Assembly (NCBI RefSeq): GCF_040822085.1
Contig: NZ_CP162006.1
Coordinates: 2,480,001 to 2,544,000 of the forward strand
From: Rhodoferax sp. WC2427
GTDB taxonomy: Bacteria; Pseudomonadota; Gammaproteobacteria; Burkholderiales; Burkholderiaceae_C
Direction: 5' to 3'
Length of the DNA stretch: 64,000 nucleotides
Shown: positions 3,264 through 17,663 of the stretch, piece by piece
How positions within the stretch are numbered: position 1 is the stretch's first letter
Layout of the letters: each line of letters begins with the position of its first letter
Program-made: the position numbers and the translations under genes
The notes under the pieces: generated by a model
Told to the model about the DNA's origin: nothing
The model's database searches: none
Seen by the model: only the letters and a program-made list of their open reading frames with translations

Positions 3264-4817
3264 TTAGCCCGGCAGCGCTTCTGCAGCACCGGCTTCCAGG
3301 CGGAAGGCGCTGACCAGGCTGGTCAACCCCAGGGCCGAGCGCTTGAGGTTCTCGGCCGAAGCAGCGCTTTCTTCCACCAGCGCCGAGTTTTCTTGGGTCA
3401 TCTGGTCCAGCCGGGCCACGGCTTCGTTGATTTGGCCTATGCCCTGGCCCTGCTCGGAGGCGGCGGCAGTGATCTCGGCAATGATGTCGCTCACGCGCTG
3501 CACCTGGTGGACGATCTCGGTCATGGTGGTGCCAGCCTCCTGTACCAGTTTGCTGCCGGATTCGACCCGGCCTACGCTGGCATCGATCAGGGCCTTGATC
3601 TCTTTGGACGCCTCGGCGCTGCGTTGGGCCAGCAGACGTACTTCGCTGGCCACCACGGCAAAACCACGCCCCTGCTCACCGGCCCGGGCGGCTTCCACCG
3701 CCGCATTCAGCGCCAGGATATTGGTCTGGAACGCAATGCTGTTGATCACGCCGATGATGTCGACGATCTTGCGCGAGCTGTCGTCGATGCCCTGCATGGT
3801 GGTCACCACCTGGCCCACCAGTTGGCCGCCGCGCGCGGCCACGGTCGCAGCCGACGCGGCCAGCTGGTTGGCCTGGCGGGCGGATTCGGTGTTTTGCGCC
3901 ACGGTGGCGGTAAGCTGCTCCATGGCGGCGGCAGCTTCTTGCAGGCTGGCGGCGGTGCTCTCGGTCCGGGTACTCAGGTCCATACCGCCGTGGGCGATTT
4001 CGGCGCTGGAGTACTTGATCTCTTGCGACGATGTGCGCACTTCGCCCACCATCTGGCGCAAGGCCGTCTGCATGGCCATCAGCGCCTCCTGCAGGGTCCC
4101 AATTTCGTCGGTGCGGGTGCGCCGAATGTCGGCGAACAGGTTTCCCGCAGCCACTTCCTGGGCAATGCGGGTGCAATGGGCAATGGGTTGGCGGATGCTG
4201 GCCAGCACCGGACGAGACACCCCGACCAAGACCATCAGTGCTGCAGCCAGCACGACCCACGAGGTGCTTGCAACCTCTTTGCCTGTAGCAGTGAAGGCCG
4301 CAATCGTGCTGTCGGCCAGTTTGTTGCCTTCCTCCACGGTTTCATCCACCCCGGCCCGGTGTTCCAGGTACAGCGCTTGGGCCCGCACCAGTTGTTCATG
4401 GGCCGCTGCCGTATCGTTCTTGGCCAGTGCGGGCATTACCCCGTCACGCGCTGCGGCAATGAATTTCTGTGCTGCCTGGTGCTGGCGGCCAAGCAGTTGC
4501 TTCTCCAGACCATACGGTGGATTTTCCGTCCAGTAAGCGACCCGTTTCTCGTACCCACGTACCAGGTTGGCCACCTGTTTTTGCGCCTCGTCTAAGGGCA
4601 TGGTGCCTTCCACCGCTTGTGATAGCACCAGTCGCAATTCAATCAGATAAAGCGGTGGCGGCAAGATATCGCCCACCACGTCTTTGGTCACAAAGGTTTT
4701 TTTTGCCATGTCGTTGAGGCGGTTGAAGCCCACGTACGACTGTATGGCGATGACCAGGGCGGCCAAGATGCCAACGGCGGCTAGTAGAAGAGTGGAGCTG
4801 CGGATAGATCGGAACAT
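3264..4817 (-). CDS. Methyl-accepting chemotaxis protein
   Basis: Inner-membrane chemoreceptor of 517 residues that should signal through CheA/CheW. It has a short N-terminal membrane segment (about 9-28), a periplasmic helical sensor domain (about 35-180, four-helix-bundle style), a second membrane segment (about 185-207), a HAMP linker and a cytoplasmic signalling domain with the conserved hairpin tip [20 protein letters not shown]. The start at 4817 ([12 protein letters not shown]) is preferred because it puts the signal-anchor at the N-terminus with GGGG upstream; the open frame runs 46 codons further without support. The ligand is unknown. It is not next to che genes. Confidence 0.9.
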
Positions 4818-4996: not shown

Positions 4997-7900
4997 ATGT
5001 TTGTCCACCTCCGCCTCCATACCGAATTTTCTGTCGTTGACGGCACCAACCGCATCGACGACACCGTCAAGGTAGCCGCCAAAGACCAGCAACCCGCGCT
5101 GGCCATCACCGACCTGAGCAACCTGTTTGGTGCGCTCAAGTTTTACAAGGAAGCCCGGGGCAAAGGTGTCAAGCCGGTCATTGGGGCGGAGATTTTCCTG
5201 GAAGGGCAGGGCCTGGATGCCACGGCTCTGTCACGCGTCATCGTGCTGGTGCAAAACAAGCAGGGCTACCTGAACCTGTCGGAGCTGCTGGCCCGCGGCT
5301 TTACCCAGAATATTGTCAAAAACCAGGCGGTGATCAAATTCGCCTGGCTGCACGAGCTCAATGCGGGCCTGATCTGCCTGGCCGGTGCCCAGGCCGGGCC
5401 GGTGGGCCAGGCCCTGGTGCAGGGCGATACCGTACGGGCCGATGCCATGGCCAGCCAGCTGGCGGCCTTGTTCCCGCAACGCTTCTACATCGAGCTGCAG
5501 CGCGCTGGCCGCCCCGACGACGAAGCCCATGTGGTGGCCGCTGTACAACTGGCGGCCCGCCTGCAACTGCCCGTGGTGGCCACCCACCCGGTACAGTTCA
5601 CCGAAGAGTCCGACTACGAGGCGCACGAGGCCCGCGTCTGCATTTCGGACGGCGAAATCCTGGGCAACCAGCGCCGCGTGCGCCGCTTCACCCGCGAGCA
5701 GTATTTCAAGTCCAGTGCGCAGATGCTGGCGCTGTTTGCCGACATTCCCTCGGCCATAGCCAACACGCTGGAGATCGCCAAGCGCTGCAACCTGACCCTG
5801 GTGCTGGGCAAACCGCAGTTGCCTGACTTTCCCACGCCCCTGGTCGATGGCGTGCGCATGAGCCCCGAAGATTACTTCCGCTACGCCTCGCACGAGGGCC
5901 TGAAAGAGCGCTTGCTGCACCTGTACCCGGATGCGGCCAAGCGCGAAGAGGTGCGCCCCGGCTACATCGAGCGGCTGGAGTTCGAGATCAACACCATTTT
6001 GAAAATGGGGTTCCCCGGCTACTTTCTGATCGTGGGCGACTTCATCAACTGGGCCAAGAAAAACGGCTGCCCGGTGGGGCCGGGCCGGGGTTCCGGTGCA
6101 GGCTCTTTGGTGGCCTACGCGCTGAAGATCACCGACCTGGACCCGCTGCAGTACAAGCTGCTGTTCGAGCGGTTTTTGAACCCCGAACGGGTGTCCATGC
6201 CCGACTTTGACATCGACTTTTGCCAGGGCAACCGCGACCGGGTGATCGACTATGTGAAAGAAAAGTACGGCAAAAACGCCGTCAGCCAGATCGTCACCTT
6301 CGGCACCATGGCAGCCCGCGCGGCCATCCGCGACGTGGGCCGGGTGCTGGACCTGAGCTACTCGTTCTGCGACGGCATCAGCAAGCTGATTCCCAACAAG
6401 CCCGGCATGTCGGTCACGCTGCAGTACCCACCGGCCACCAAGAAGGAGGGCGACAAGAACAACTACGCCATCGAGATGGAGCCGGTGCTGGCCGCCCGCA
6501 TCGAGGCCGAGGAAGACGTGCGCACCCTGATCGAGATGGCGCAAAAGCTCGAAGGCATGACCCGCAACGTCGGCATGCACGCCGGGGGCGTGCTGATTGC
6601 GCCGGGCAAGCTGACCGACTTTTGCCCGCTCTACCAGCAACCCGGCAGCGAATCGGCGGTGAGCCAGTTTGACAAGGACGACGTGGAGGCCATCGGCCTG
6701 GTGAAGTTCGACTTCTTGGGCCTGGCCACGCTGACGATTCTGGAGATTGCCAAGGACTTCATCGTCGCCCGCCACAAGGGCCAGGAGAACTTTGCGTTCG
6801 AGAACATCCCGCTGGACGACGCCAAGACCTACCGCCTGTTCTCCGAGGGCAAGACCGAGGCAGTATTCCAGTTTGAAAGTACCGGCATGCAGCGCATGCT
6901 GAAAGACGCCAAACCCACCCGCCTGGAAGACCTGATCGCCCTGAACGCGCTGTACCGGCCTGGCCCGATGGACCTGATCCCCAGCTTTGTGGCACGCAAG
7001 CACGGCCGCGAAGTGGTGGAGTACCCGCACCCGCTGGTGGCCGAGATGCTGAGCGAGACCTACGGCATCATGGTCTACCAGGAGCAGGTGATGCAGACCG
7101 CGCAGATCCTGGGCGGCTACTCGCTGGGCGGTGCCGACATGCTGCGCCGCGCCATGGGTAAAAAGAAGGCCGAGGAAATGGCCGAGCACCGCGCCATCTT
7201 CCGCGCCGGTGCCGCCAAAAACGACATCAATGAAGCCAAGGCCGATGAAATCTTCGACCTGATGGAGAAGTTTGCGGGCTACGGCTTCAACAAGTCGCAC
7301 GCTGCCGCCTATTCGCTGCTGGCGTACCACACCGGCTGGCTCAAGGTGCATTACTGCGCTGAGTTTTTCTGCGCCAACTTGACGGTGGAAATGGACGACA
7401 CCGACAAGCTCAAACTGCTGTTTGAAGATGCCGGCAAGATGGGGCTGACGTTTGAGCCACCCAACGTCAACCTGGGCCGCCACCGCTTCGAGCCCGTCAC
7501 CGACAAAATCATCCGCTACGGCCTGGGTGCCGTCAAAGGCACGGGTCAGCAGGCGATTGAGGCCATCGTGGCAGCGCGCGAAGCGGGTGGGGCGTTTACC
7601 AGCCTGTTTGACTTCTGCGTGCGGGTGGACAAGTCCAAGCTGAACAAGCGCACCGTCGAGGCGCTGATCAAGGCCGGGGCGTTTGACGCGATCGAAATCA
7701 ACCGCGCGGCGCTGATCGCCTCGGTCGACCGTGCCTTCGCCTTTGCCGCCGCCACACTGGCCAACGCCAACCAGGGCGGCTTGTTCGACATGGACGACAG
7801 CCACGGCTCCAGCACCCAAGAGCCCGAGTTGGTCGAAACCCCGATGTGGGGTATCAAGGAACGCCTGACGCTGGAGAAGACCGCGGTGGGCTTTTATTTG

Positions 7901-8527
7901 TCGGGCCATTTGTTCGACGAAGTGCGCAAAGAGGTGCGCCGCTTTGCCAAACGCGACCTGGCCGACGCGGTGGACAGCCGCGACACGGTCATGTTTGCGG
8001 GCATCGTCAGCGATCTGCGCGTCATCAACGGCCAGCGCGGCAAGATGGGCCTGTTCCGGCTGGACGACGGCACCGGCATGGTCGATGCGCGGGTCAGCGA
8101 CGCGCTGATGCAGGCAAACAAGAATCTGTTCAAGGACGACGAACTCATCATCGCCATGGGCCGGGTGCAAACCGACCGGTTTGGCGGCGGCGGCCTGCAG
8201 ATGAACATCACCGAAGCCTGGGACTTGGCCACGGCGCGTTGCCGCTACGCCAAGTTCCTGCGCCTGCAACTGCCACCCAACGCGACGGGCTCCGGGCTCG
8301 ACATCGCCCAATTGGTACGGGATTTCCCGCCGCGGCCCGAAACCACCGAGCAAGGTGATGTGCGCCACGGCTTACCGGTACGCCTGTCGGTCCAGCGCCA
8401 AACCGCCCAAGGCAGCGCCGTGGCGGTGTTGCAACTGGGCGAACAGGCCCGTTTTTACCCGACCGATGCAGCCCTGGCGTACTGCCAGGCGCAGGCAGCA
8501 GAAGCCGTGGTGGCGTACGAAGACTGA
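4997..8527 (+). CDS. dnaE: DNA polymerase III subunit alpha
   Basis: Catalytic subunit of the replicative polymerase, 1176 residues, normal for the DnaE1 class. The order is: PHP domain from [10 protein letters not shown] (residues 4-13), the [14 protein letters not shown] motif near 363, the catalytic PDFDIDF near 401, the third catalytic Asp in KFDFLGL near 570, thumb/fingers, helix-hairpin-helix region ([17 protein letters not shown]), an OB domain near 995-1030 and a C-terminal tau/clamp-binding region. The start at 4997 gives [16 protein letters not shown], as in the family. The gene stands alone, divergent from the chemoreceptor gene, and is the last chromosomal gene before the dif-integrated element. 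Confidence 0.97.
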
Positions 8528-8612
8528 ACCATCCCATTCCCGTGTTGGCGTTTGCGCACGCCGCGGGGATGGAAAGCTGCGTGCCAACGGATCGGAAGCT
8601 GTTAGTGCAGGC

Positions 8613-8639
8613 GGTGTAGGGGGTGTAGGGGGTGTAGGG
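8613..8639. repeat. Three tandem copies of GGTGTAGGG
   Basis: Three uninterrupted 9-bp units, at 8613, 8622 and 8631, in the gap between dnaE and attL. No coding support. The remaining part of the gap (8528-8704) shows no other recognisable signal. Confidence 0.7.
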
Positions 8640-8704
8640 GCAAGAGGTGAGCGTATTGCGAGGATGCAGAAAGCGATGATAGTGATCACCGTGCAGTCTT
8701 TGTT

Positions 8705-8732
8705 ACTTAACATAATATACATCGTATCAAGT
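8705..8732. other. attL: dif-like XerCD site at the left end of the element
   Basis: A 28-bp site made of an 11-bp arm ACTTAACATAA, a central hexamer TATACA and an 11-bp arm TCGTATCAAGT. Read on the - strand, the hexamer is TGTATA followed by TTATGTTAAGT, matching the central region and XerD arm of Escherichia coli dif (TGTATA, TTATGTTAAAT) almost perfectly. The right 20 bp are repeated with one mismatch at 17644-17663. The outer (left) arm should be chromosomal and the inner arm from the element. Confidence 0.85.
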
Positions 8733-8767
8733 AGGGCGATGGCATGGTAACCGGCAACTAAGCGTCC

Positions 8768-8797
8768 CCGTCAGTGAGTTTTTTATCGCACTGACGG
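8768..8797. other. Perfect 9-bp hairpin inside the left end of the element
   Basis: CCGTCAGTG (8768-8776) and CACTGACGG (8789-8797) around a T-rich 12-base loop, about 50 bp inside attL. There is no T-run after the stem on either strand. It could be a fold-back signal of single-stranded phage DNA or a regulator site for the gene that starts about 20 bp later. Confidence 0.6.
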
Positions 8798-8819
8798 AAT
8801 TTATAGTTTGCAACTATGG

Positions 8820-9254
8820 ATGCGCCAAATGCCTAAAGAACGAACCCGCCCAACCGTGGACCTAAGCTATATTTTTTACAACCTGCGCACCGTTCGCGAT
8901 GCAAAGACCCGCCGATCTTGGCAGCGCCGGGCGCGCATAGCGCTGGACCTCCTTGACTTTCTTACCCCAGCAGAACGCCACGAAATTACCTGCGTGTGGA
9001 GTAAGCAGGACTGCGACAAATACGACTCACCAGCGATGAACAAGCTTCAAGCGCGCTTGCGCGGCAAGCCGACACCAACCCGTTCGCGGCATGACTGGGA
9101 ATACAAGCCAGCGTCCAGCGCCATCCGCGCCGGGTTCGATGCCCACGGCCAAAAAATCCCGCGCACAAAAAAGCCGGGCTTGGTTACCCGGCTCGACTTT
9201 GGCCCGGCTGCAAACGAGCCTTGGCCTGTATTGCAGCTTTCCCTTATCGGCTGA
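8820..9254 (+). CDS. Unrecognised basic protein of the prophage
   Basis: About 144 residues, rich in Arg and Lys, with the N-terminal part MPKERTRPTVDLSYIF and a helical segment (RARIALDLLDFLTPAERHEI). No family recognised. It is one of the few plus-strand frames in the element and runs divergently from the main operon, the position where small phages often keep a regulator; that role is only an inference. The start is uncertain: ATG at 8820 or 8829, or TTG at 8808 with GGAA about 8 bases upstream. Confidence 0.55.
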   Translation: MRQMPKERTRPTVDLSYIFYNLRTVRDAKTRRSWQRRARIALDLLDFLTPAERHEITCVWSKQDCDKYDSPAMNKLQARLRGKPTPTRSRHDWEYKPASSAIRAGFDAHGQKIPRTKKPGLVTRLDFGPAANEPWPVLQLSLIG

Positions 9255-9269
9255 CCGCTGCCCGACGGG

Positions 9270-9521
9270 CTACCGCGTGTAGCCTGCGCAGGCCCCAGCG
9301 TTCACACCGCCCTTGCACTCGCGCCGCAAGCGTGCATCCCGCTGCGTCTGCGTCTCTCCGCCCGGCAGTCGGTCCCGTGATACCGCCACTTTGGTGCAGT
9401 GCAAGCCGCCACGCGGCCCCGTCCAGCAACCCGACGCATCCACCGGATGCGCAGCCGCCCACGCCCCCGAAACTGCGAAATATGCCGCCACGACCACAAG
9501 GCGCTTTGTAAAGATAGTCAA
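9270..9521 (-). CDS. Small secreted protein, function unknown
   Basis: 83 residues starting at a TTG with an AAGGGG ribosome site 6 bases upstream. It has a clear signal peptide (FTKRLVVVAAYFAVSGAWA) with likely cleavage after residue 22 or so. The mature part is about 60 residues with four Cys in the pattern C-W-T-G, LHC, RREC and GAC, suggesting disulfides in the periplasm, and a DRLPGGETQTQRDARLRREC segment. It converges with the 8820 gene. It may be a lysogenic-conversion (moron) gene; no family is assigned. Confidence 0.55.
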   Translation of the reverse strand: MTIFTKRLVVVAAYFAVSGAWAAAHPVDASGCWTGPRGGLHCTKVAVSRDRLPGGETQTQRDARLRRECKGGVNAGACAGYTR

Positions 9522-9821
9522 TTTTCACCCCTTCGCCCCAGCAGGGCACACGAACACACCAAACACCCCCGCTACGTCCGCAGCAGGCCAAAGCCATAAA
9601 CGAAATATCCAGCCATCCGGTGCACAGGCTCGCAAAACTGGTTTTCCCAAAAGTCGTTTTCCTGCACCCCACCGCAAGCAGTCAATTTACAACTTTACAA
9701 AGCCCTGTTTTTCAATTTTGAAAAGCTTACCGCTGTCTAGTTCTACGTTTCAAAGGGCACCTTCAAGAACCATCCAACCTTCAATATATTGGCTTACCGC
9801 CTTGATTCCCGAAAAACCCGG

Positions 9822-9993
9822 CGTTAGCAATAATCACCGATATTTTTGGTTAGTTTTTAACAGCCGTTAGCAATATTTCGGCAAAAAATTTACCCGAAAA
9901 ATGGTTCCGTTAGCAATATTCCTGCACAAATTTACGGGCAAAAATGTCCACGTTAGCAATAAGCTGCCGTGAAAAAATTTCCAAGAGTTTCCG
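9822..9993. repeat. Four iterons CGTTAGCAATA with exact 43-bp period
   Basis: CGTTAGCAATA occurs at 9822, 9865, 9908 and 9951, each exactly 43 bp after the previous one (about four helical turns). The rest of each 43-bp unit is AT-rich, and units 2-4 share a loosely conserved AAAAATTTNCC-like block, so only the 11-mer is strictly fixed. The array sits in the element's only large non-coding region (9522-10058). Same-face phasing of a conserved 11-mer in AT-rich DNA is typical of initiator or repressor binding arrays. No other gene signal was seen in 9522-10058 apart from the hairpin at 10003. Confidence 0.85.
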
Positions 9994-10002
9994 GGATTGA
10001 AA

Positions 10003-10027
10003 GCCGTTCTGCGTCCGGCAGAACGGC
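10003..10027. terminator. Strong hairpin at the end of the prophage operon
   Basis: GCCGTTCTGC (10003-10012) and GCAGAACGGC (10018-10027) form a perfect 10-bp stem with loop GTCCG, 31 bp beyond the stop of the last operon gene. Only a short TTT follows on the - strand, so it may be a weak terminator, an mRNA 3'-end stabiliser or a packaging/replication hairpin next to the iterons. Confidence 0.55.
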
Positions 10028-10058
10028 ATAGACGCGCATTGCACGCGCCGCTGATGGG

Positions 10059-10631
10059 TCAGGTCCAAACCTGTTTATGAGTGCGCCGATAACGCGCCTG
10101 ATTAATTCGGTTCATCACTTTTTTCTGATCTATCTTTTGCTGATAGCCCGCCTGCGTGAACGCTGCGTTCTTGCGCACCCTGCGCATGAGGTACTTGCTT
10201 ATCAACGCCGCACCCCGGCCCGTTTCAATCTCGTGTTTGATGCCCGCCTCTATGGCCGACTTCAAACCCGCCGAAAGCACGGACCCCAGGTCTATCCCCA
10301 GGTCTAGGGACAGGTCCACCGACAGCTTTTTATCTATGGCCGACGTGATGCCGCTGGGGGTCAGGTGCTCGACTTCCAGCCCGGTGCGTTCGCTGATGAC
10401 TTGCGCCATGGTTTCGCTTGTCAGTGGTCCGTCTGGCAGCGGCACCCCGGCGCGCTCAAACATGTTCCTGATCTTTGGCTCGAAGCGTTCAAGCGCCCGC
10501 GTGGTTAGCCGTTCCTCCAGCACTGCCGACAGCCCGACCCAAGAGCCCGTATTCTGGTGATGGTCAAACGCCGCGTCTACCAGATCATTCAAGATGCCCG
10601 CCGTGGCGCGGGCCGTTGCGATCTTGTCCAT
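10059..10631 (-). CDS. Prophage protein with conserved basic C-terminal motif (A)
   Basis: 190 residues from an ATG that overlaps the previous stop by one base (TAATG). It is mostly helical, with a region alternating Leu/Ser/Asp (SVDLSLDLGIDLGSVLSAGL) and a strongly basic end finishing in NQARYRRTHKQVW. The same basic end, with the same spacing, closes the upstream neighbour. Last gene of the operon. No family recognised. A virion or DNA-associated role is an inference from the basic tail and late position. Confidence 0.75.
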   Translation of the reverse strand: MDKIATARATAGILNDLVDAAFDHHQNTGSWVGLSAVLEERLTTRALERFEPKIRNMFERAGVPLPDGPLTSETMAQVISERTGLEVEHLTPSGITSAIDKKLSVDLSLDLGIDLGSVLSAGLKSAIEAGIKHEIETGRGAALISKYLMRRVRKNAAFTQAGYQQKIDQKKVMNRINQARYRRTHKQVWT

Positions 10632-11275
10632 TATTTCAACTCCCAAACTCGTTTGTGCGATGCGCGGTAGCGCGCCTGCCGTTCCCGGTTGCTGATGGCC
10701 TTTTTGGTCCATATGTAGGGCTTGTCCCGGCCCGGCTGGTATCCCGGTGGCACGGGCGCGCCGGACTCCGCCGCTTTCTTGTTTGCCTCGCGGATTTTTT
10801 GCACCATCTTCACCAGCGGTAGCGCGCCGTCTATCAAGTCGCCGCCACCCTCCCCCACCTGTTCAATCACGCGGGCGCTTACGTAGTCCCGCAGCGCCTG
10901 TTTCATGCCGTCCACGTCCAGGGTCTTAATATCCAGCCCGGTTTTCTGCACGGCGGTCAGCAAGGCCACTTTGTGCAGGTCTTTTTTTACGGCATCGCGG
11001 TTGAAAATATCGGTCAACTGCACGCCGGTATTGGCAAGCGGCCCGGCATTGATGGCCGCTGTTATGGCTTCTTTATTGAATCCGTTTTCAGGGTCCAAGG
11101 CCAACCCCATTGTTTCAAAGGCCTTTTGAAGTGCCCACTTCTCAACATCTTTGCCGTAGGACTCGACCACACGATCAATGATGTGCCTGCCTACATCGGT
11201 CTGATTCGCCACAACGATTGCGGCAACGATGGGCGCGAGGATGGCGGCAGCGGCTGCAATTACAGGTACTGGCAT
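10631..11275 (-). CDS. Prophage membrane-anchored protein with conserved basic C-terminal motif (B)
   Basis: 214 residues. It begins with a hydrophobic segment (VIAAAAAILAPIVAAIVVAN, residues 4-23), consistent with insertion in the inner membrane or a virion membrane, followed by a helical body and a Pro-rich stretch, and ends in RQARYRASHKRVWELK, related to the tail of the next gene. It starts three bases after the collagen-like gene's stop and overlaps the next start. No family recognised; function unknown. Confidence 0.75.
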   Translation of the reverse strand: MPVPVIAAAAAILAPIVAAIVVANQTDVGRHIIDRVVESYGKDVEKWALQKAFETMGLALDPENGFNKEAITAAINAGPLANTGVQLTDIFNRDAVKKDLHKVALLTAVQKTGLDIKTLDVDGMKQALRDYVSARVIEQVGEGGGDLIDGALPLVKMVQKIREANKKAAESGAPVPPGYQPGRDKPYIWTKKAISNRERQARYRASHKRVWELK

Positions 11276-11278
11276 GGC

Positions 11279-11932
11279 TTACCCCATCTTGCGCAGGTAT
11301 GCGCCTCGGACATTTAGGGCTGTTCCGTGCCCATAAGTCAGGCCCAAGCCGATCATCGGATTTTCGCCCGACACCGCCAACGGTCCCGCCCTGGTGGTCC
11401 CTGTTTCCACACTCGACCAAGCCACCACCGCCCCGCCATCTTCCACCACGATGATGAACTTGGAGATGCAAAACCCTGCACCATCAAACACACAAGGCAC
11501 ATCGTTTTGCAGCAGCCCTACCGTGTTGTTTTCCCCACCACCCACGAGCCCCACGCGCACGTCCACAGAGGCGTAAGCCTGCATTACCATGGCTCCCTCG
11601 TACGTTCCCTGCGCCACTGGCGTGATCAAGGCGATAGGCACAATCTCCGTATAGTCGCCCTCCCTCACGGTGTGCAGGTTCATTACCGCACCCACCGCGT
11701 CGCCACCGCCACCGCCACCGCCACCGGCTCCCGCAGCGCCAGCAGGCCCTACCGGGCCAGCCGGGCCAGCTTGGCCAGCTGGCCCCGGCACTCCGCCACC
11801 AAGCGCCAGCACCTCCCCGGTTTCCGTTTTCACGGACGGCACTCCGTCCGCGTCGATGAACAGCATGCGCCGCCCCACGTCTGGCACAGGCACTGCACCA
11901 GCCGCCACCATCCCCATATCTAAAGCACTCAT
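11279..11932 (-). CDS. Collagen-like prophage protein, probable receptor-binding or spike protein
   Basis: 217 residues from ATG 11932, which overlaps the preceding 43-residue gene (ATGA) and has a G-rich ribosome site. The N-terminal part has MLFIDADGVPSVKTETGEV, a pattern seen in phage fibre proteins. It is followed by a short collagen-like tract (GPAGQAGPAGPVGPAGAAG, residues about 51-69), a run of eight glycines, and a beta-rich C-terminal domain of about 130 residues. Trimerising Gly-X-Y stalk plus beta-rich head suggests a fibre or spike; this is inference. No specific family recognised. Confidence 0.75.
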   Translation of the reverse strand: MSALDMGMVAAGAVPVPDVGRRMLFIDADGVPSVKTETGEVLALGGGVPGPAGQAGPAGPVGPAGAAGAGGGGGGGGDAVGAVMNLHTVREGDYTEIVPIALITPVAQGTYEGAMVMQAYASVDVRVGLVGGGENNTVGLLQNDVPCVFDGAGFCISKFIIVVEDGGAVVAWSSVETGTTRAGPLAVSGENPMIGLGLTYGHGTALNVRGAYLRKMG

Positions 11933-12060
11933 AGCGCCCCCAATCGAATCACACCGTTCAGAACCAGCAGCCCGCGCACCATAAAATTGCGCGTCACCAC
12001 CATGCAAAGGCCCTCGGCCACGACGACGCGCACGCCGCCGGGCACGCTGTAGCGGACCAT
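11929..12060 (-). CDS. 43-residue prophage protein
   Basis: Short frame from ATG 12060 with AAGGCGG about 5 bases upstream, ending in a TGA that overlaps the next gene's ATG. The peptide begins MVRYSVPGGVRVVVAEGL and ends LLVLNGVIRLGAL; it is beta-prone, with valines alternating. The coupling on its 3' side and lack of any other frame in this gap support it as a real gene. No function can be assigned. Confidence 0.6.
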   Translation of the reverse strand: MVRYSVPGGVRVVVAEGLCMVVTRNFMVRGLLVLNGVIRLGAL

Positions 12061-12085
12061 GTTTACCGCCTTGCGGTCCAACAGA

Positions 12086-12292
12086 CTAGCGTTCGCCACG
12101 GACCACCCCCACCGCCGCCGCGTGGTCGCGCAGCTTGTCGATCTGCACGCCCTGCGCTACGACAATTTCACGCACGCCGTTCACGCGCTCCGACAAGGCA
12201 GCGAAGTCCGACCGCATGCCCGCGTAAATCCCGGCCCCCGTTACCATGGTGGTAAGCAGCTGGAAGACGAAGCCCGGCGGCAGGCGACTCAC
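12086..12292 (-). CDS. Single-span coiled-coil protein, spanin-like
   Basis: 68 residues from a GTG that overlaps the holin-like gene's stop (GTGA). One membrane span near residues 8-25 (VFQLLTTMVTGAGIYAGM) is followed by a helical heptad-like region (residues 26-60). This topology and its place after endolysin and holin resemble an inner-membrane spanin or small phage membrane protein. No lipoprotein partner was found. A longer frame starting at 12349 exists but would overlap the holin gene. Confidence 0.6.
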   Translation of the reverse strand: MSRLPPGFVFQLLTTMVTGAGIYAGMRSDFAALSERVNGVREIVVAQGVQIDKLRDHAAAVGVVRGER

Positions 12293-12471
12293 GACGACAC
12301 CCCCGGCGCTGCCCCCGTTTCCCGTTTCGCCACAGCGACAGCCCCGCATACCGCAGTTAACAGGCTCAAGGCTGCGCTGTACTGCGGAACCACCAGCGCC
12401 GCCGCCTGCAAGACCGAAGCAAGCCCGGCCCAGCTCGACGGCTCAGCCGCCACCTTTTTGATTGAATCCAT
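12289..12471 (-). CDS. Holin-like small membrane protein
   Basis: 60 residues with an N-terminal amphipathic stretch and one or two hydrophobic segments (SWAGLASVLQAAALVVPQYSAALSLLTAVCGAVAVA broken at the Pro-Gln), ending in a short charged tail. Size, hydrophobicity and location directly after the endolysin (3 bases apart) fit a holin. Assignment is by context; no conserved holin family motif was recognised. Confidence 0.65.
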   Translation of the reverse strand: MDSIKKVAAEPSSWAGLASVLQAAALVVPQYSAALSLLTAVCGAVAVAKRETGAAPGVSS

Positions 12472-12474
12472 TTT

Positions 12475-12852
12475 TTACCCCTTGTCGTTTTGAAAATGCG
12501 GATAGTCCGGCGTGCGCCACCGCCCGCCCCAGGTCAGACCCGCCGCTTCGCCCAGCGCGCCCAGGCGCTGCCATAGCTCACCGTCCGGCCCGACGGTGCC
12601 CCACACGGGCACGCCGTGGCGCAGCGGCACCACGTCCAGCGCTTCGCCGCTCTCATGCATGCTGACCTTGGCCCAGGTCACCATCCGGCCCGGCGTGGTG
12701 CGGCCCTGCGCCCACAGCGCGGCCTGTTCTTCCCTGGTGCGCAGCGTGCACGTCACCAGCACATCAATCCCGTTTTGCTTTGCCGAATCTAAAAAGGCCT
12801 GCGCTTTTTGGGCGCAGGCCTTTGTTAAGTCGGACAGGTTCCGACTTGGCAT
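12475..12852 (-). CDS. Endolysin, M15-type L-alanyl-D-glutamate peptidase
   Basis: 125 residues, single catalytic domain of the VanY/M15 family used by phages to cut peptidoglycan peptides. Visible are TCTLRTREEQAALWAQGRT (early conserved Arg/Glu region), SMHESGEALDVV (zinc-binding His and Asp, H-x6-D) and the C-terminal TWGGRWRTPDYPHFQ (catalytic Asp and third zinc-binding His). All key residues of the family appear present. It begins one base after the 178-residue gene's stop. Codons about 10-21 contain an intrinsic-terminator-like hairpin. Confidence 0.9.
   Translation of the reverse strand: MPSRNLSDLTKACAQKAQAFLDSAKQNGIDVLVTCTLRTREEQAALWAQGRTTPGRMVTWAKVSMHESGEALDVVPLRHGVPVWGTVGPDGELWQRLGALGEAAGLTWGGRWRTPDYPHFQNDKG
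12791..12820 (-). terminator. Rho-independent terminator inside the endolysin 5' end
   Basis: On the - strand GGCCTGCGC (12820-12812) and GCGCAGGCC (12804-12796) form a perfect GC-rich 9-bp stem with a 7-base loop, followed at once by five T (12795-12791). It lies after the 178-residue gene but within endolysin codons about 10-21, so it would attenuate transcription into the lysis genes and everything downstream. Confidence 0.75.
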
Positions 12853-13389
12853 TTAGCCGCCCGCAGCTGCCAGGATGCCTTCGATGCGGGTCTTTTCGGC
12901 CACGAGCCAATCACTTTGCGCTTGCATGGATTCCAACTGCGCATTCTTCTCGGCCTTTACCGCAGCCTCGGCAGCGGTCAGATTCACGGGGAACAAGGCG
13001 ATTTGCGCTTGCATTTGTGAAATGTCCGTGCTGATGGCGGCGATCTGTTTCACCAGGGATGCCACATCGCTGACGGCTTTTTTGGTCAGGTCGCCGGTGT
13101 AGGCCTTTGGCTCCAACGCGATCACGTTGTCAAACATGTAGGCGATGGACGAGTCACCATTGATCACGCCAGCTTTGGCCGCAGCCTTGATGAAGTCATC
13201 CACGTCCTTGAAGACGCGCACTTTGCCCAGCGTGTCGGCAATGTAGTGCTGCGGCACGGTGGGATCTCCAAACGAGGCTTTCACCTTGACTGAGAAATCG
13301 CCGTTCTTGACGTTGGTTACTTCAAAGTTGAAGCCGATCACGGCAGCGCCCAGGGACACCACACGCGCAAGTTGAATACGAGCAGTCAT
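12853..13389 (-). CDS. 178-residue prophage protein, candidate virion protein
   Basis: Starts at ATG 13389 with GGAG 8 bases upstream (a TTG two codons earlier is less likely). The N-terminal half is beta-prone (VVSLGAAVIGFNFEVTNV, FSVKVKASFGDP), the middle contains a helical region and the last 55 residues form a heptad-like helix (residues about 120-175). It is the first gene after the only sizeable gap in the operon and is followed by a terminator-like hairpin, so it could be expressed at a high level. That makes it a candidate structural protein, but no capsid fold can be recognised. Confidence 0.75.
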   Translation of the reverse strand: MTARIQLARVVSLGAAVIGFNFEVTNVKNGDFSVKVKASFGDPTVPQHYIADTLGKVRVFKDVDDFIKAAAKAGVINGDSSIAYMFDNVIALEPKAYTGDLTKKAVSDVASLVKQIAAISTDISQMQAQIALFPVNLTAAEAAVKAEKNAQLESMQAQSDWLVAEKTRIEGILAAAGG

Positions 13390-13416
13390 TTCCAAAACTC
13401 CAATTGGTTTGTGTTG

Positions 13417-13437
13417 TCAATAGCGAAATACTATTGA
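13417..13437. promoter_or_regulatory. Inverted repeat in the rep to 178-residue gene gap
   Basis: TCAATAG (13417-13423) and CTATTGA (13431-13437) separated by CGAAATA, in the 93-bp gap downstream of rep. It could be an operator or part of a promoter for the 178-residue gene; no clear -35/-10 pair was identified. Confidence 0.4.
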
Positions 13438-13482
13438 TGGGCGGGATGGTGCCCACTGCAAAGCAAATTGCAAGAACTAATT

Positions 13483-15414
13483 TCAGCCAGCCCGCGCCAC
13501 GGCATCGCGCCGCCGGTCTGCCAGCACCCGCAGCCGCTCCAATGCCCTGAAATAGTCGAAGTCTGGCCCCGACTCCTCTACGGCTTGCACCTTGTGCACC
13601 ACCCGAACTCTGTTATGCGCGTTCCTGTCAACGCGGCCCGGTGTGCCCGGCGTACAGTTATTTACACGAGTCCTAGGCAGCGGCTGCGCCCCTGCTGGGA
13701 CGGGCTCCAATGCGGGAACGGATACCGAACCCCGCTCAACAAAGCGCCACGCCCGGCGCTCCGAGAACACGCAGCGCGTGCCCGGCCAATTCAGGCGTAC
13801 ACCCATCGGCACCTTTCGCACACACGACCCATAGCGCCCGGCAATTTCACGGGGCTCCGTAGCAATGCACAGTTTGTAGGCCCGGCCCACCATCACGCCG
13901 CCCTGCGCCCTGATGTAGTCCGCCCACGATGCCCGGCCCTCGGCTTCGATGCGCTGCGCCCGGCCCGCCGGGTCCAACGTTCCCGCGATGCCATCCACCC
14001 CCTGCGCAGCAACCCAGGCCCGGTGCACGATGCCGCCGCGCCCCGCAGCGTTCGCCCCGGCCTCGGATACGCGCCGCAGTTCCCGCCATACCGTTACCGG
14101 CGGTTGTCCCAGCGGCTGAAACTGCCGGATGCCCCAGGTGGACGCCCAGGCCTCGACGCGCATACTTGGAGTGATCTCCATGTCGCCGATCAAATCCCTA
14201 TTAATAGGACCGTCCGCGTAATCATCAATATGTGAATCTATCGCCACGTCATCGATATTTTTTGCGATGTACTTGGCGATGTAGCCCGCCGCGCCGCCGC
14301 CCTCCATGCGCTTGGAGTTGACCCGGTATTTCTTGGCCCCCGGTTCTTCTCCGTCATCGCTCAGCCAGTGGGCGCGCATCACCTCGACCACACTATCTAT
14401 GGCGGCATCGTCCCGCGCCCATATCAATAGGTGCCAGTGCGGGCACCCGTCGTGGTGCGGCTCTGCCACGCGAAAGCCGAACATGTCCACGCCGTCCCGT
14501 TTCAGCTTTGCCCTGGTGCGTGACCACATGAGCCGCAGCCACGCCTGCGCCTCGCGTGGGTTCGAACCATCGTGCTTTGGGTTGCGGTCGCCGTTGCGTA
14601 GCGTGCTGTGGTATCGGCTTGGACAGGTTCCGGTCAGGAACACGCCGGGCATGCCCATTTCATCGGCGATCACCTCGCAGCCGCGTATGCGCGTCATCAA
14701 CTCGCCGCGTCGAATGGACTTCTTCGCCGTGGACCTCGCGGCCAACTCGGCCAAGGTGGCCCGCTGGCCATCCTCATTTTCCATGACGGTGTTTTCCAGC
14801 GCCGCCGCATTCCGCTTGTTTTGGTCCAGCCGCCGGAATACGGCTTTGTTGCTGGCGTAGGGCTGGTTTGCGGGCTTGCTCACCAGCCCCAACGACATGG
14901 CCCCGCGCTCCGCTTTTTGGGCAACCATCTTGCGGATGGCCCGTCGCCACCAGTACCGGCACGACACGCGGGCGGCAATGCCGGGCAGCAGGTAGCCCGG
15001 ACCCGGTGCGCCTACCTCACGGTGGGCGCAAAAATCAAGAATGCGGGCGTACTCGGCCCACGGCCCGGCGCGCCCCACCGTGCCCAGGTCCAAATCCCGC
15101 GCATCCCGTTCGTAGGTTTCTGCAAGCCGCTTGATGTCACCGTCCGACATGTCCGCCGCCGCCGCGCCACCATACTCCCCTATCCAGCGCTCCCAAACGG
15201 CGCGGGCCTCTATGTCAGACGGCCAGCCCATGGCGGTACGCGCCGCCCTGGCTTCACGCTCTATGGGCCGCAGCCAGTCGCCCGGCAACTGCGCCGCCGC
15301 CCGCACACGCGCCGCCCGCAGCTTTTGCGCGTCCTCGTGCCAGCTCATGTTTGCCGGGTATTTGTGCTTTCGCGGTGCCCTCTTTGCGGCTCCCCTCCCC
15401 GCCCCGTCACGCAT
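13483..15414 (-). CDS. HUH replication initiator, phage gpA family
   Basis: 643 residues, the size of P2 gpA and PM2 P12. It should nick the replication origin and start rolling-circle synthesis. The HUH metal motif is CPHWHLLIW with His326 and His328, and the two catalytic tyrosines appear as GYIAKYIAKN (Tyr378, Tyr382) with the three-residue spacing of superfamily I initiators. AWASTWGIRQFQPLG after the active site is also typical of the family. The FLTGTCPSRYHS segment near 259 is the first conserved motif. The start overlaps the preceding gene by 8 bases. The N-terminal 200 residues are basic and probably bind DNA. The origin itself was not located. Confidence 0.93.
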   Translation of the reverse strand: MRDGAGRGAAKRAPRKHKYPANMSWHEDAQKLRAARVRAAAQLPGDWLRPIEREARAARTAMGWPSDIEARAVWERWIGEYGGAAAADMSDGDIKRLAETYERDARDLDLGTVGRAGPWAEYARILDFCAHREVGAPGPGYLLPGIAARVSCRYWWRRAIRKMVAQKAERGAMSLGLVSKPANQPYASNKAVFRRLDQNKRNAAALENTVMENEDGQRATLAELAARSTAKKSIRRGELMTRIRGCEVIADEMGMPGVFLTGTCPSRYHSTLRNGDRNPKHDGSNPREAQAWLRLMWSRTRAKLKRDGVDMFGFRVAEPHHDGCPHWHLLIWARDDAAIDSVVEVMRAHWLSDDGEEPGAKKYRVNSKRMEGGGAAGYIAKYIAKNIDDVAIDSHIDDYADGPINRDLIGDMEITPSMRVEAWASTWGIRQFQPLGQPPVTVWRELRRVSEAGANAAGRGGIVHRAWVAAQGVDGIAGTLDPAGRAQRIEAEGRASWADYIRAQGGVMVGRAYKLCIATEPREIAGRYGSCVRKVPMGVRLNWPGTRCVFSERRAWRFVERGSVSVPALEPVPAGAQPLPRTRVNNCTPGTPGRVDRNAHNRVRVVHKVQAVEESGPDFDYFRALERLRVLADRRRDAVARAG

Positions 15415-15673
15415 ATTTCATCGGCTCCAGCAGGCGCGCCCACTCCCGGGCATGGCGGGCCACCATATCCCGCGTTTTCTGCGACAACTGGCCCCAGCGG
15501 CGAACACAATTTGTATCGCTATCGTCGGCCCCGGCCATGGCGCACAGCAGCCGCCGCTGCTCCAGCGTGAGGCGCTGCCACCACTTGGCCCGCCAGTCCA
15601 TCGCCCCGTTTTGCAAACATTCCTCGCGCACGCGGGCCAAGCGCTCCCGGACGGCATCACGCGCCGCGCTCAT
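15407..15673 (-). CDS. 88-residue prophage protein
   Basis: Starts at ATG 15673 overlapping the stop of the collagen-like gene (ATGA) and overlaps the rep start. It is an Arg- and Trp-rich helical protein (MDWRAKWWQRLTLEQRRLL) with no membrane segment. The coupling to rep suggests a replication accessory role or simply shared translation. No family recognised. Confidence 0.7.
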   Translation of the reverse strand: MSAARDAVRERLARVREECLQNGAMDWRAKWWQRLTLEQRRLLCAMAGADDSDTNCVRRWGQLSQKTRDMVARHAREWARLLEPMKYA

Positions 15674-17124
15674 GCTCCAAACCCTTCGAATGAGAATCCT
15701 GCCGCCGTTACGTCCGCTACCGGCACCGACACCGTATCTATGACCACATCCCCATCCAGCCCGCGTGCATTTACCTGCACGTCTGACCCCTCCTGTCTGA
15801 AATTCCACGCCGTCGGCAGCACCGCCGCCAACTGCACGGGCGCATCTCCCCCAGCTACCGTGCCCCCGATCAATGCACCCCATGAGGTGCTCAAAATCCA
15901 GCCCACGTGCCCCGATACGCTGACGAGCCCCGACGACTCCGACCACCCCCGCAAGACCTCACGCGTGGCAATGTCTATGAGCAGTAGCGGCGCTTTTGGG
16001 TCTACCAGCCCCGCAAGCTGTTTCAGAAAATAGTCACCCCCGCCATATGGCCCAAGGTCAGGCGCTGCACCTTCAAACCACTGCACAGCACCCTCTCGGT
16101 TTCCCCCGTCCAGCTTCGCACGCAATGGCAAGAACCAATCCCCTGCCCCATGCCATTCGCCATCGTCCAGCAGCGCTTTTACAGGCATGACCACCGCCCA
16201 TGACGAAGACATGGCCGCGCCAGCCCACAGCGATACCGCAGGCTCCACCGGCTCCACGGCCCCGCCGCCACTGCCCGCCGGTCCACGCGGCCCGGCTGGC
16301 CCCATTGGCCCCACCTCCCCACGTTCGCCGCGCTCACCCGGCACACCTTGCGGCCCCTGCACACCCTGCGGCCCCTGCGCGCCGTTTTGCCCCGGCAGAC
16401 CATCAAAGCCACGCGGCCCCGGCACGTCCGATGGGTCACCCTTGTATCCACGCGGCCCCGGCACCCCCTCAATACTCGCCGGGTAGACGATCAACCGGGG
16501 ACTGTCAAAGCCCCAAAAATCCGGTTCCGGGTTGTCGGCCAGATCACCGATAACGGCCCAACCGTCAGCCGTTACCGGAACTTCGAAAGGGGCAAGCGTC
16601 CCTATCACTGTTTGGAGCGTCACCGCGTGCCTATCGTTGTTCAGGTAGTCGGCCCGCCCGCTCAGCGGCAACACCTCACGCAGCACGCGCACGTACCACT
16701 CACTTTTCATGGTGTAGAACCAGTCCAGCGCCGCCCCGTCTGCGTAGCCGTAGCTGTTTACGCCCATGAGCACCTCATATACCGCTTTGGTTTGCCACTC
16801 CCCATCGACGGGCCGAATCTGCACGCGCAGAAACATTGCCTCACCGGTGCCCAGCGGGCGCGCCGCCGTCTCGCCGTCAATCGTCCCAGCGATCACCAGC
16901 GCCGCCCGCAGGCCCGCCCACAAGGTCTTCACCTCAAGGTCAAACATGGCCGGGTTTTGCAGCCGCCCGGCGTTGGGCTCTGTGCTGAATTGCGTGAGAC
17001 CGTCGCCATCGGCCCAGGTGTACAGGTCCAGCAGCAGCGCAGCGGCCCGGCATGCGTCATCCAGGCGGCTGGCATTCGCACGGTACTTTTTCAGGCTCAG
17101 GGTTTCAGTTGGGCTTGTTGCCAT
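15670..17124 (-). CDS. Large collagen-like prophage protein
   Basis: 484 residues from ATG 17124, which shares one base with the previous stop (TGATG). An N-terminal globular domain of about 220 residues (with YGYADGAALDWFYTMKSEW) is followed by a collagen-like tract of about 75 residues starting GVPGPRGYKGDPSDVPGPRG and ending GPAGPRGPAGSGGG, then a C-terminal domain of about 170 residues. Head, trimeric stalk and tip architecture suits a spike or receptor-binding protein. The longer frame to 17178 would overlap the small upstream gene. No named family recognised. Confidence 0.8.
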   Translation of the reverse strand: MATSPTETLSLKKYRANASRLDDACRAAALLLDLYTWADGDGLTQFSTEPNAGRLQNPAMFDLEVKTLWAGLRAALVIAGTIDGETAARPLGTGEAMFLRVQIRPVDGEWQTKAVYEVLMGVNSYGYADGAALDWFYTMKSEWYVRVLREVLPLSGRADYLNNDRHAVTLQTVIGTLAPFEVPVTADGWAVIGDLADNPEPDFWGFDSPRLIVYPASIEGVPGPRGYKGDPSDVPGPRGFDGLPGQNGAQGPQGVQGPQGVPGERGERGEVGPMGPAGPRGPAGSGGGAVEPVEPAVSLWAGAAMSSSWAVVMPVKALLDDGEWHGAGDWFLPLRAKLDGGNREGAVQWFEGAAPDLGPYGGGDYFLKQLAGLVDPKAPLLLIDIATREVLRGWSESSGLVSVSGHVGWILSTSWGALIGGTVAGGDAPVQLAAVLPTAWNFRQEGSDVQVNARGLDGDVVIDTVSVPVADVTAAGFSFEGFGA

Positions 17125-17261
17125 CACGCCCCCCGCTGCGCACGGTGCTTGATTGATGCAGCCCAGCAATAGGACCAAGCCCCAGTCTTAGCCCCGGCCA
17201 CTGGTGCGCAGATATGGCCCCAATGCCCCATAGCCATGGAAAAGAAGGTGTACAGCGGCAT
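17124..17261 (-). CDS. 45-residue prophage protein
   Basis: ATG at 17261 lies two bases after the preceding stop, and its TGA overlaps the next start. The peptide begins MPLYTFFSMAMGHWGHICAP; it is moderately hydrophobic with a basic end (IKHRAQRGA). Tight coupling on both sides supports it. No function assigned. Confidence 0.55.
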   Translation of the reverse strand: MPLYTFFSMAMGHWGHICAPVAGAKTGAWSYCWAASIKHRAQRGA

Positions 17262-17263
17262 CA

Positions 17264-17506
17264 CTACACCCCCATCGCTTCTTTGTGCACGCCGCTGCCC
17301 ATGCGCGCCGCCACCAACTCCCACGCCGCCGCGCCCGCCGTCTCAAATGCCGCAGGCACTACGCCGATTGTTTCCGCGTCGATGGTCAGCGATGCCTGAA
17401 TCTGCCGGTCAGCACCCAGTATCTGCACCAGCACGCAGCCCGGAGACGTGGGGCTAGGCTTAATTTCCAGGCGCTTGCCCGCAAGGCAGCAAATTGTGTG
17501 TTTCAT
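17264..17506 (-). CDS. First gene of the prophage operon, 80-residue unknown protein
   Basis: ATG at 17506 has GGGA 8 bases upstream; a longer start at 17515 is possible. The protein is beta-prone (VLVQILGADRQIQASLTIDAETIGVV) with Cys at residues 6 and 7 and ends in a Met/Gly-rich tail. It is the promoter-proximal gene of the minus-strand operon. No family recognised. Confidence 0.6.
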   Translation of the reverse strand: MKHTICCLAGKRLEIKPSPTSPGCVLVQILGADRQIQASLTIDAETIGVVPAAFETAGAAAWELVAARMGSGVHKEAMGV

Positions 17507-17635
17507 GTTGAGCATCCCAAATATTTACGGAATGCCCTACTAGCTACGATGCCGCGTCAACCGGCCAATGTGTTGCACGTTATCGAGCAAACTTAGCCCG
17601 GAAACCCGCGCCAACGCTAGAGATTGTGCACAATT
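17507..17635 (-). promoter_or_regulatory. Leader region of the prophage operon with palindrome
   Basis: About 130 bp between attR and the first gene, expected to hold the operon promoter. A perfect palindrome ATTGTGCACAAT lies at 17623-17634, touching attR, and could bind a dimeric regulator. A TTGACG is present on the - strand near 17558, but no convincing -10 box at the right spacing was found. Confidence 0.4.
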
Positions 17636-17663
17636 CTGGTGCGTAATATACATCGTATGAAGT
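17636..17663. other. attR: dif-like XerCD site at the right end of the element
   Basis: Arms CTGGTGCGTAA and TCGTATGAAGT around the same central TATACA as attL. The right arm and hexamer match attL with one mismatch, while the left arm is diverged, as expected if it comes from the phage site. Joining the outer halves of the two sites recreates a dif with arms ACTTAACATAA and TCGTATGAAGT. Confidence 0.85.

What the first reader, a model, noticed from the sequence alone, without database searches (positions are those of the whole stretch)
8716..17646. Complete small-genome phage of unassigned type integrated at dif
An 8,931-bp segment between two dif-like sites has an HUH gpA-type initiator, a lysis cassette and about a dozen overlapping genes, most of which I cannot place in any family. 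There is no integrase, terminase, portal, tail, Zot or other recognisable ATPase, and no recognisable capsid protein. The size and initiator resemble PM2 (corticovirus) and other small circular-genome phages, but the lack of a P9-like ATPase and the two collagen-like proteins do not fit PM2. An active, undescribed phage lineage is a reasonable hypothesis.
Basis: partly seen in the sequence, partly recalled or inferred. Interest (0 to 1): 0.92.

Follow-up and report, generated by a model that had tools for sequence, protein, structure and literature searches.

The report
Small dif-integrated prophage, unknown capsid
An 8.9-kb prophage sits at the chromosome's dimer-resolution site and belongs to a small, unnamed phage-like lineage that carries its own replication starter and lysis genes, but in which no capsid or packaging protein of a known family could be recognised.

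Summary
8716-17646 is one 8,931-bp unit between the host's own dif (8705-8732) and a hybrid dif (17636-17663); a same-genus genome has the empty site. It encodes a gpA-type HUH initiator, M15 endolysin, holin-like protein and two collagen-like proteins; 0 of 113 ORFs has a Walker A motif.

It is not a one-off. A core (178-aa protein 'g178', 214-aa helical protein with basic tail and its paralogue, endolysin, holin-like protein) recurs in a Glaciimonas soli prophage of about 8.0 kb between dif-like sites of the same polarity, and partly in a third genome. Homologues lie on metagenome contigs of 9.06-9.27 kb. No relative of g178 or the 214-aa protein was found in INPHARED or IMG/VR. The initiator's relatives include PM2-like phages; their capsid and ATPase are recognised there by the same libraries, not here.

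Best reading: an intact temperate phage of an undescribed lineage. g178, with the highest host codon adaptation in each of three elements (z=5.2 here), is my candidate coat protein; its model is a small beta domain plus long helical hairpin, not a jelly roll. No virion is shown; a helper-dependent satellite is the main rival.

The parts
8705..8732 (.). host dif (left junction), hexamer core 8716-8721
   Evidence: single dif in 7 of 8 same-genus genomes; empty site in L021
17636..17663 (.). hybrid dif-like right junction: same hexamer and one arm, the other arm diverged
   Evidence: same polarity in L004
13483..15414 (-). gpA-type HUH replication initiator, 643 aa
   Evidence: PF05840 E 2.3e-69; phrog_91 E 6e-143
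12853..13389 (-). g178: candidate major coat protein; small beta domain plus long helical hairpin (model)
   Evidence: 18 homologues; model pLDDT 92, pTM 0.57; codon adaptation 0.655, z 5.2
12475..12852 (-). M15 peptidase endolysin, 125 aa
   Evidence: PF13539 E 1.4e-13; phrog_6523 E 1e-27
12289..12471 (-). holin-like protein, 60 aa, one hydrophobic segment
   Evidence: weak matches to a 56-aa ORF of PM2-like L042 (E 7e-4) and a 62-aa ORF of L015 (E 0.008)
12086..12349 (-). small ORF overlapping the holin-like gene; possible lysis partner (guess from position)
   Evidence: no family match
11279..11932 (-). short collagen-like protein, 217 aa, candidate spike
   Evidence: Gly-X-Y stretch; weak collagen-type PHROG matches
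10631..11275 (-). 214-aa helical protein: N-terminal hydrophobic helix, basic C-terminal helix; candidate membrane and genome-binding virion protein
   Evidence: 40 homologues; model pLDDT 84
10059..10631 (-). paralogue-like partner of the 214-aa protein, about 190 aa, same basic C-terminal motif
   Evidence: second match of the 214-aa profile in the own genome, E 4e-4; 26% to L004 203-aa protein
15670..17124 (-). long collagen-like protein, 484 aa, candidate spike or fibre
   Evidence: PF01391 E 2.9e-7
15407..15673 (-). 88-aa ORF overlapping the initiator start
   Evidence: open frame only; no family match
17264..17515 (-). 83-aa ORF, first of the minus-strand genes
   Evidence: open frame only
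9822..9964 (.). four 14-nt repeats (CGTTAGCAATA...) at exactly 43-bp spacing in the non-coding stretch; candidate operator or origin array
   Evidence: 0 of 2000 mononucleotide shuffles held two copies of the 10-mer
8808..9254 (+). only long opposite-strand ORF, basic, candidate regulator by position
   Evidence: charge +13; no family match

Best explanation
An intact temperate phage of an undescribed lineage. The circular genome carries one dif-like site and enters the chromosome at dif through host XerC/XerD, so no phage integrase is needed (junctions shown, enzymes inferred). After excision the gpA-type initiator nicks its origin and copies the genome by rolling circle (inferred from the family). 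The strongly codon-adapted g178 forms the particle shell; the 214-aa helical protein and its paralogue sit at a membrane or inner face and bind the genome through their basic tails, so that assembly needs no packaging ATPase; collagen-like proteins are host-binding spikes (all inferred). Holin-like protein and M15 endolysin then lyse the cell (family shown, act inferred). The lineage claim carries the stated confidence; that g178 is the coat I hold at about 0.45.
For: Exact dif-to-hybrid-dif unit and empty site in a relative. Core shared with Glaciimonas soli L004: initiator 41%, endolysin 49%, 214-aa protein 27% (E 9e-18), paralogue 26% (E 7e-11), g178 position (profile 10.8 bits against at most 4.4 in 300 shuffles; hhalign 72% against at most 1% in 30 shuffles), between dif-like sites 7,974 bp apart with the same polarity. 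L015 of genome G429: initiator 34%, g178 homologue E 5e-7, lysozyme, holin-like protein, basic-tail protein, unit of 7,866 bp between direct repeats. Homologues on 9,061-9,272-bp contigs; lengths 9,200 and 9,162 occur for both g178 and the 214-aa protein. Own endolysin and holin-like genes speak for lytic release. g178 has the highest codon adaptation of the genes measured in 3 of 3 elements, z 5.2, 2.4 and 3.7. The L015 325-aa protein begins with a g178-like domain (27.9% over 172 aa, E 5e-4), as capsid-like domains head spike proteins in phiCjT23 (PMC9719478, passages).
Against: No virion, induction, circular junction or expression data. No recognised capsid in any protein tested. In L004 and L015 the initiator's z is about the same as that of the g178-type gene (2.3 against 2.4; 3.7 against 3.7), and the filamentous Zot-like gene of L004 has as high an index (0.62). 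The L015 325-aa protein reaches 13.7 bits but only 5.9% hhalign probability against the g178 profile. Second g178-like candidate of L004 (219 aa) does not exceed shuffles. The three initiators do not group in the tree. No dif-like site in L015. Integrated copies are rare: 4 of 399 order genomes, own included, one of them a remnant and one weak, and 1 of 369 class genomes, the own.
Confidence: 0.6

Rival explanations
1. A satellite: it replicates with its own initiator and lyses with its own genes, but is packaged in particles of a helper phage.
For: No recognised capsid or motor. A filamentous prophage with Zot and secretin lies elsewhere in the genome, and in Glaciimonas a Zot-like ORF and a second HUH Rep lie directly next to the element.
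Against: Own endolysin and holin-like genes fit badly with extrusion of filamentous particles (recalled biology). Conserved core of several proteins without satellite-type hijacking families; collagen-like proteins look like the element's own spikes. The adjacency in Glaciimonas is expected anyway, as both use dif.
Confidence: 0.2
2. A double-jelly-roll phage (FLiP-, Odin- or PM2-type) whose capsid protein has diverged beyond recognition, for example within a collagen-like protein.
For: Initiator relatives include PM2-like phages; dif integration as in phiCjT23 and Jorvik (PMC9719478, PMC10589892, passages); FLiP and the Odin group also lack an ATPase (PMC5894146, passages).
Against: PF18628/PF25513 and phrog_8536 find the capsid in 3 of 3 PM2-like contigs tested and nothing here. 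Models of g178 and the 214-aa protein are not jelly rolls. The N-terminal domain of the long and the C-terminal domain of the short collagen-like protein have no phage match at E 0.1, but their folds were not predicted.
Confidence: 0.12
3. Same phage, but g178 is an abundant single-stranded-DNA-binding protein and the coat is another protein (214-aa pair or a collagen-like protein).
For: It follows the initiator, as gene V follows gene II in filamentous phages (recalled). Best BFVD fold match is an unnamed 89-aa protein (E 4.6e-4).
Against: Net charge of the 19 family members is near zero (-3 to +6). g178-like domain heads a longer protein in L015.
Confidence: 0.2
4. A decayed fragment of a larger tailed prophage.
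For: gpA-type initiators are common in P2-like tailed phages; nearest isolated-phage matches are Acidovorax phages of 37-40 kb (45-49% over 56-64%).
Against: Exact unit with empty site; core recurs at the same size class in other hosts; no tail, terminase or portal family (tail-fibre PHROGs match only the collagen stretch).
Confidence: 0.02

Closest known systems
PM2-like phages (Vinavirales / Corticoviridae), incl. Jorvik and IMG/VR contigs L040, L042, L043
   Same: About 9-11 kb, gpA-family initiator, dif-like integration in some (Jorvik: passages), small lysis genes
   Different: Double-jelly-roll capsid and packaging ATPase not found here; g178 and the 214-aa family not found in the 80 IMG/VR loci searched
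Finnlakeviridae and phiCjT23
   Same: 7.6-9.2 kb (FLiP size recalled), rolling-circle initiator, no packaging ATPase, dif integration for phiCjT23 (passages)
   Different: Their double-jelly-roll capsid not recognised here; other host phylum; no shared protein seen
Odin group of ATPase-less double-jelly-roll genomes (PMC5894146, passages)
   Same: Small genome, no packaging ATPase
   Different: Known by its double-jelly-roll capsid, not found here; not compared sequence by sequence
Filamentous phages (Inoviridae) at dif
   Same: XerCD/dif integration without integrase; HUH initiator
   Different: No Zot-type ATPase; endolysin and holin-like genes present
P2-like tailed phages
   Same: Initiator family (phrog_91, E 6e-143)
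   Different: No head, tail, terminase or integrase family found; about a quarter of the size

Membership tests
[quoted passage not shown]
   No PF18628/PF25513 or phrog_8536 match while 3 of 3 PM2-like controls match; folds of the collagen-like proteins not predicted
Vinavirales / Corticoviridae (PM2-like) | FtsK/HerA-type packaging ATPase | tested here: not met
   0 of 113 ORFs with Walker A; controls L040, L042, L043 each show it in the ATPase ORF, phrog_2666 in 3 of 3
Finnlakeviridae / phiCjT23-like | Double-jelly-roll capsid with rolling-circle initiator and no ATPase | tested here: inconclusive
   Initiator present, ATPase absent; capsid not recognised; models of g178 and 214-aa protein not jelly rolls
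Inoviridae (filamentous) | Zot-type morphogenesis ATPase | tested here: not met
   The only Zot match of the genome is at 0.648 Mb, outside the element; no Walker A
Microviridae | Single-jelly-roll capsid protein F / VP1 | tested here: not met
   No Pfam or PHROG capsid match; sequence level only
Caudoviricetes (P2-like) | Terminase, portal, HK97-type capsid, tail | tested here: not met
   No such family-7 other than tail-fibre PHROGs on the collagen stretches
Caudoviricetes (P2-like) | gpA initiator | tested here: met
   PF05840 E 2.3e-69, phrog_91 E 6e-143
Phage satellite | Depends on a helper's virion proteins | not testable with these tools
   Candidate helper in the genome; own lysis genes argue against
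XerCD-dif integrating elements (IMEX type) | Insertion at dif with a hybrid second site and no own integrase | tested here: met
   Junctions and empty site; same polarity in L004

The most novel reading that the evidence does not exclude
A lineage of small temperate DNA phages with its own, so far unknown virion architecture: the coat is built from g178, a short beta domain carrying a long antiparallel helical hairpin unrelated to the jelly-roll, HK97 or filamentous coat folds, and genome packaging relies on paired helical, membrane-anchored proteins with basic tails instead of a motor. The virion module is kept while initiators and endolysins are exchanged with PM2-like and tailed phages.
Probability: 0.3. 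Interest if true: 0.9.

Novelty: new variant of a known kind. Interest (0 to 1): 0.7.

Why it matters
Capsid folds define the deep branches of the virus world, and few are known for DNA viruses of bacteria. Here a bounded, recurring prophage unit gives a short list of proteins within which a new coat protein would have to lie. Pipelines that look for known capsid or packaging genes would pass such elements by: nothing related to g178 or the 214-aa protein turned up in IMG/VR or INPHARED with the scans made, although contigs of about 9 kb with these genes exist in metagenomes.
Full report
What is there. The segment between the two dif-like sites is one unit: hexamers TATACA at 8716 and 17647, 8,931 bp apart. 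The left site is the host's dif: the pattern ATAATATACATNRTAT occurs once in 7 of 8 same-genus genomes, the own included, and in L021 dnaE (97.9% over 424 aa), dif and the GGDEF gene (86% over 337 aa) follow each other in one 3-kb locus without the element. The right site keeps the centre and the arm that corresponds to XerC's in E. coli (arm names recalled), while the other arm differs. That is what recombination between dif and a circle with one dif-like site should leave. The core stretch is single-copy. GC skew on the + strand is -0.164 in the element; 54 one-kb windows outside have mean -0.016, s.d. 0.053, minimum -0.168.

Genes. All listed genes but one run on the minus strand: 83 aa, a long collagen-like protein (484 aa from 17124), 88 aa, the gpA-type initiator (PF05840 E 2.3e-69), g178, M15 endolysin, a holin-like 60-aa protein, an overlapping small ORF, 56 aa, a short collagen-like protein (217 aa), the 214-aa protein and its paralogue. 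Then follows a non-coding stretch with four CGTTAGCAATA repeats at exactly 43-bp spacing and an 83-aa ORF (9270-9521). One basic ORF (8808-9254) runs the other way. Of 10 proteins given to Pfam and 16 ORFs given to PHROGs, only the initiator, the endolysin and the collagen stretches match below E 1e-3; NCBIfam gave nothing above its cut-offs for 10 proteins.

It is a lineage. The 214-aa protein has 40 homologues besides itself at E 0.001 or better among about 5.8 billion proteins. g178 has 6 by single-sequence search and 12 more by profile, 18 in all, one of them the L015 protein. Longest contigs of several are 9,061, 9,162, 9,200 and 9,272 bp; 9,200 and 9,162 occur for both proteins, which I read as the same contigs; I could not fetch them. 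In Glaciimonas soli (L004) initiator (41% over 516 aa), endolysin (49%), 222-aa protein (27%, E 9e-18) and 203-aa protein (26%, E 7e-11) match. A 201-aa protein in the g178 position scores 10.8 bits with the g178 profile, against at most 4.4 in 300 shuffles, and 72% in hhalign against at most 1% in 30 shuffles. A dif-like site at 12405-12432 and a partial one at 4431-4458 (21 of 28 like the first; next best place 18) bound 7,974 bp, with the diverged arm at the initiator end as in the window. In G429 (L015) there are an initiator (34% over 482 aa), a g178 homologue (27%, E 5e-7), a 325-aa protein whose first part resembles it (27.9% over 172 aa, E 5e-4; 13.7 bits, but only 5.9% in hhalign), a fibre-like protein, GH24 lysozyme, a holin-like protein and a 74-aa protein with the basic motif (profile E 2e-5), within direct repeats offset by 7,866 bp; no dif-like site was found there. 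G616 (L013) keeps a remnant beside a dif-like site. The 214-aa profile rang in 4 of 399 order genomes, own included, and in 1 of 369 class genomes, the own; the single protein in 2 of 299 family genomes, own and one chance hit. Integrated copies are rare.

Not in known phage sets. g178 and the 214-aa protein have no match at E 0.1 in 50,697 phage records and gave no relative in five IMG/VR scans, which look for short exact peptides first and can miss distant ones. In the best 80 IMG/VR loci neither profile found a homologue at E 1. I read the ORFs of seven of those 80. L040 and L043 have terminal repeats of 127 and 94 bp, so look like complete circles of about 11 kb. L040, L042 and L043 carry the PM2-type capsid (PF18628 and PF25513, 3 of 3) and packaging ATPase (phrog_2666, 3 of 3). 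They served as positive control: the same libraries and the same Walker A scan find capsid and motor there and not here (0 of 113 ORFs; 0 of 86 and 0 of 95 in the two sister elements). In an 81-row tree the three elements' initiators do not form one group, with long-branch warnings. Exchange of replication genes is reported for Vinavirales (PMC9502842, passages).

Which protein is the coat? g178 stands out by codon adaptation to the host's ribosomal genes: 0.655 against 0.38-0.51 for the nine other genes measured; long window ORFs outside have median 0.593 (33 ORFs). Against 1,000 synonymous re-draws from the rest of the element it has z 5.2, 0 of 1,000 as high. The corresponding genes have the highest index of those measured in L004 (0.615, z 2.4) and L015 (0.661, z 3.7), but the initiators there have about the same z (2.3 and 3.7), and a Zot-like gene in L004 reaches 0.62. 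Its model (pLDDT 92; pTM 0.57, so the relation of its halves is unsure) has two long strands, a small sheet with a helix, and a hairpin of two helices of 31 and 38 residues: not a jelly roll. A capsid-like domain heading a longer, perhaps spike, protein in L015 recalls phiCjT23, whose spike has an N-terminal penton domain (PMC9719478, passages). That g178 is an abundant single-strand DNA-binding protein remains open; the net charge of 19 family members is near zero, -3 to +6.

The 214-aa family has a hydrophobic N-terminal segment in 33 of 41 members and a net positive tail in 41 of 41 (+1 to +8), with a body that is acidic in 35 of 41. The model is all-helical (pLDDT 84). A membrane anchor plus a nucleic-acid-binding tail is the simplest reading. 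With no packaging motor found I propose co-assembly of genome and shell, in line with the view that FLiP and the Odin group, which lack the ATPase, use another mechanism (PMC5894146, passages). Integration at dif by small non-filamentous phages has precedents: phiCjT23, Jorvik and Vibrio NO16 (passages).

Verdict. Shown: bounds, empty site, the gene families named, the recurring core, no recognised capsid or motor under positive controls. Inferred: activity, virion, coat protein, DNA type. A satellite of a filamentous phage is the main rival: the genome has one at 0.648 Mb with Zot and secretin, and in Glaciimonas a Zot-like ORF and HUH Rep lie next to the element (named by eye).

Noticed in passing
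L114 (G000:C1:641000-656000), ORFs 6614-7726 +, 7723-8958 +, 9953-10897 -: A filamentous prophage elsewhere in the genome (Zot, secretin) with a reverse transcriptase gene (PF00078 E 2e-22) and an unnamed 318-aa partner beside it, possibly a retron-like cargo.
   Followed up: partly
L004 1-4430: In Glaciimonas soli a second element with a Zot-like ORF, an HUH Rep-like ORF and a regulator-like ORF lies directly upstream of the core-bearing element, i.e. two phages in tandem at dif (names by eye).
   Followed up: partly
L040, L043 (whole): Two IMG/VR contigs with terminal repeats, about 10.6 and 11.2 kb, with a gpA-type initiator, PM2-type capsid and ATPase: PM2-like phages related in their initiator to the window's element.
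   Followed up: partly
L015 1991-2135 and 9857-10043: The third element is bounded by a long direct repeat holding the palindrome CTTAATATTATTAAG rather than by a recognisable dif; its recombination system is unknown.
   Followed up: no
window 9822-9964: Four 14-nt repeats at exactly 43-bp spacing, about four helical turns, in the element's non-coding stretch; not seen in the matching stretches of L004, L013 or L015.
   Followed up: partly
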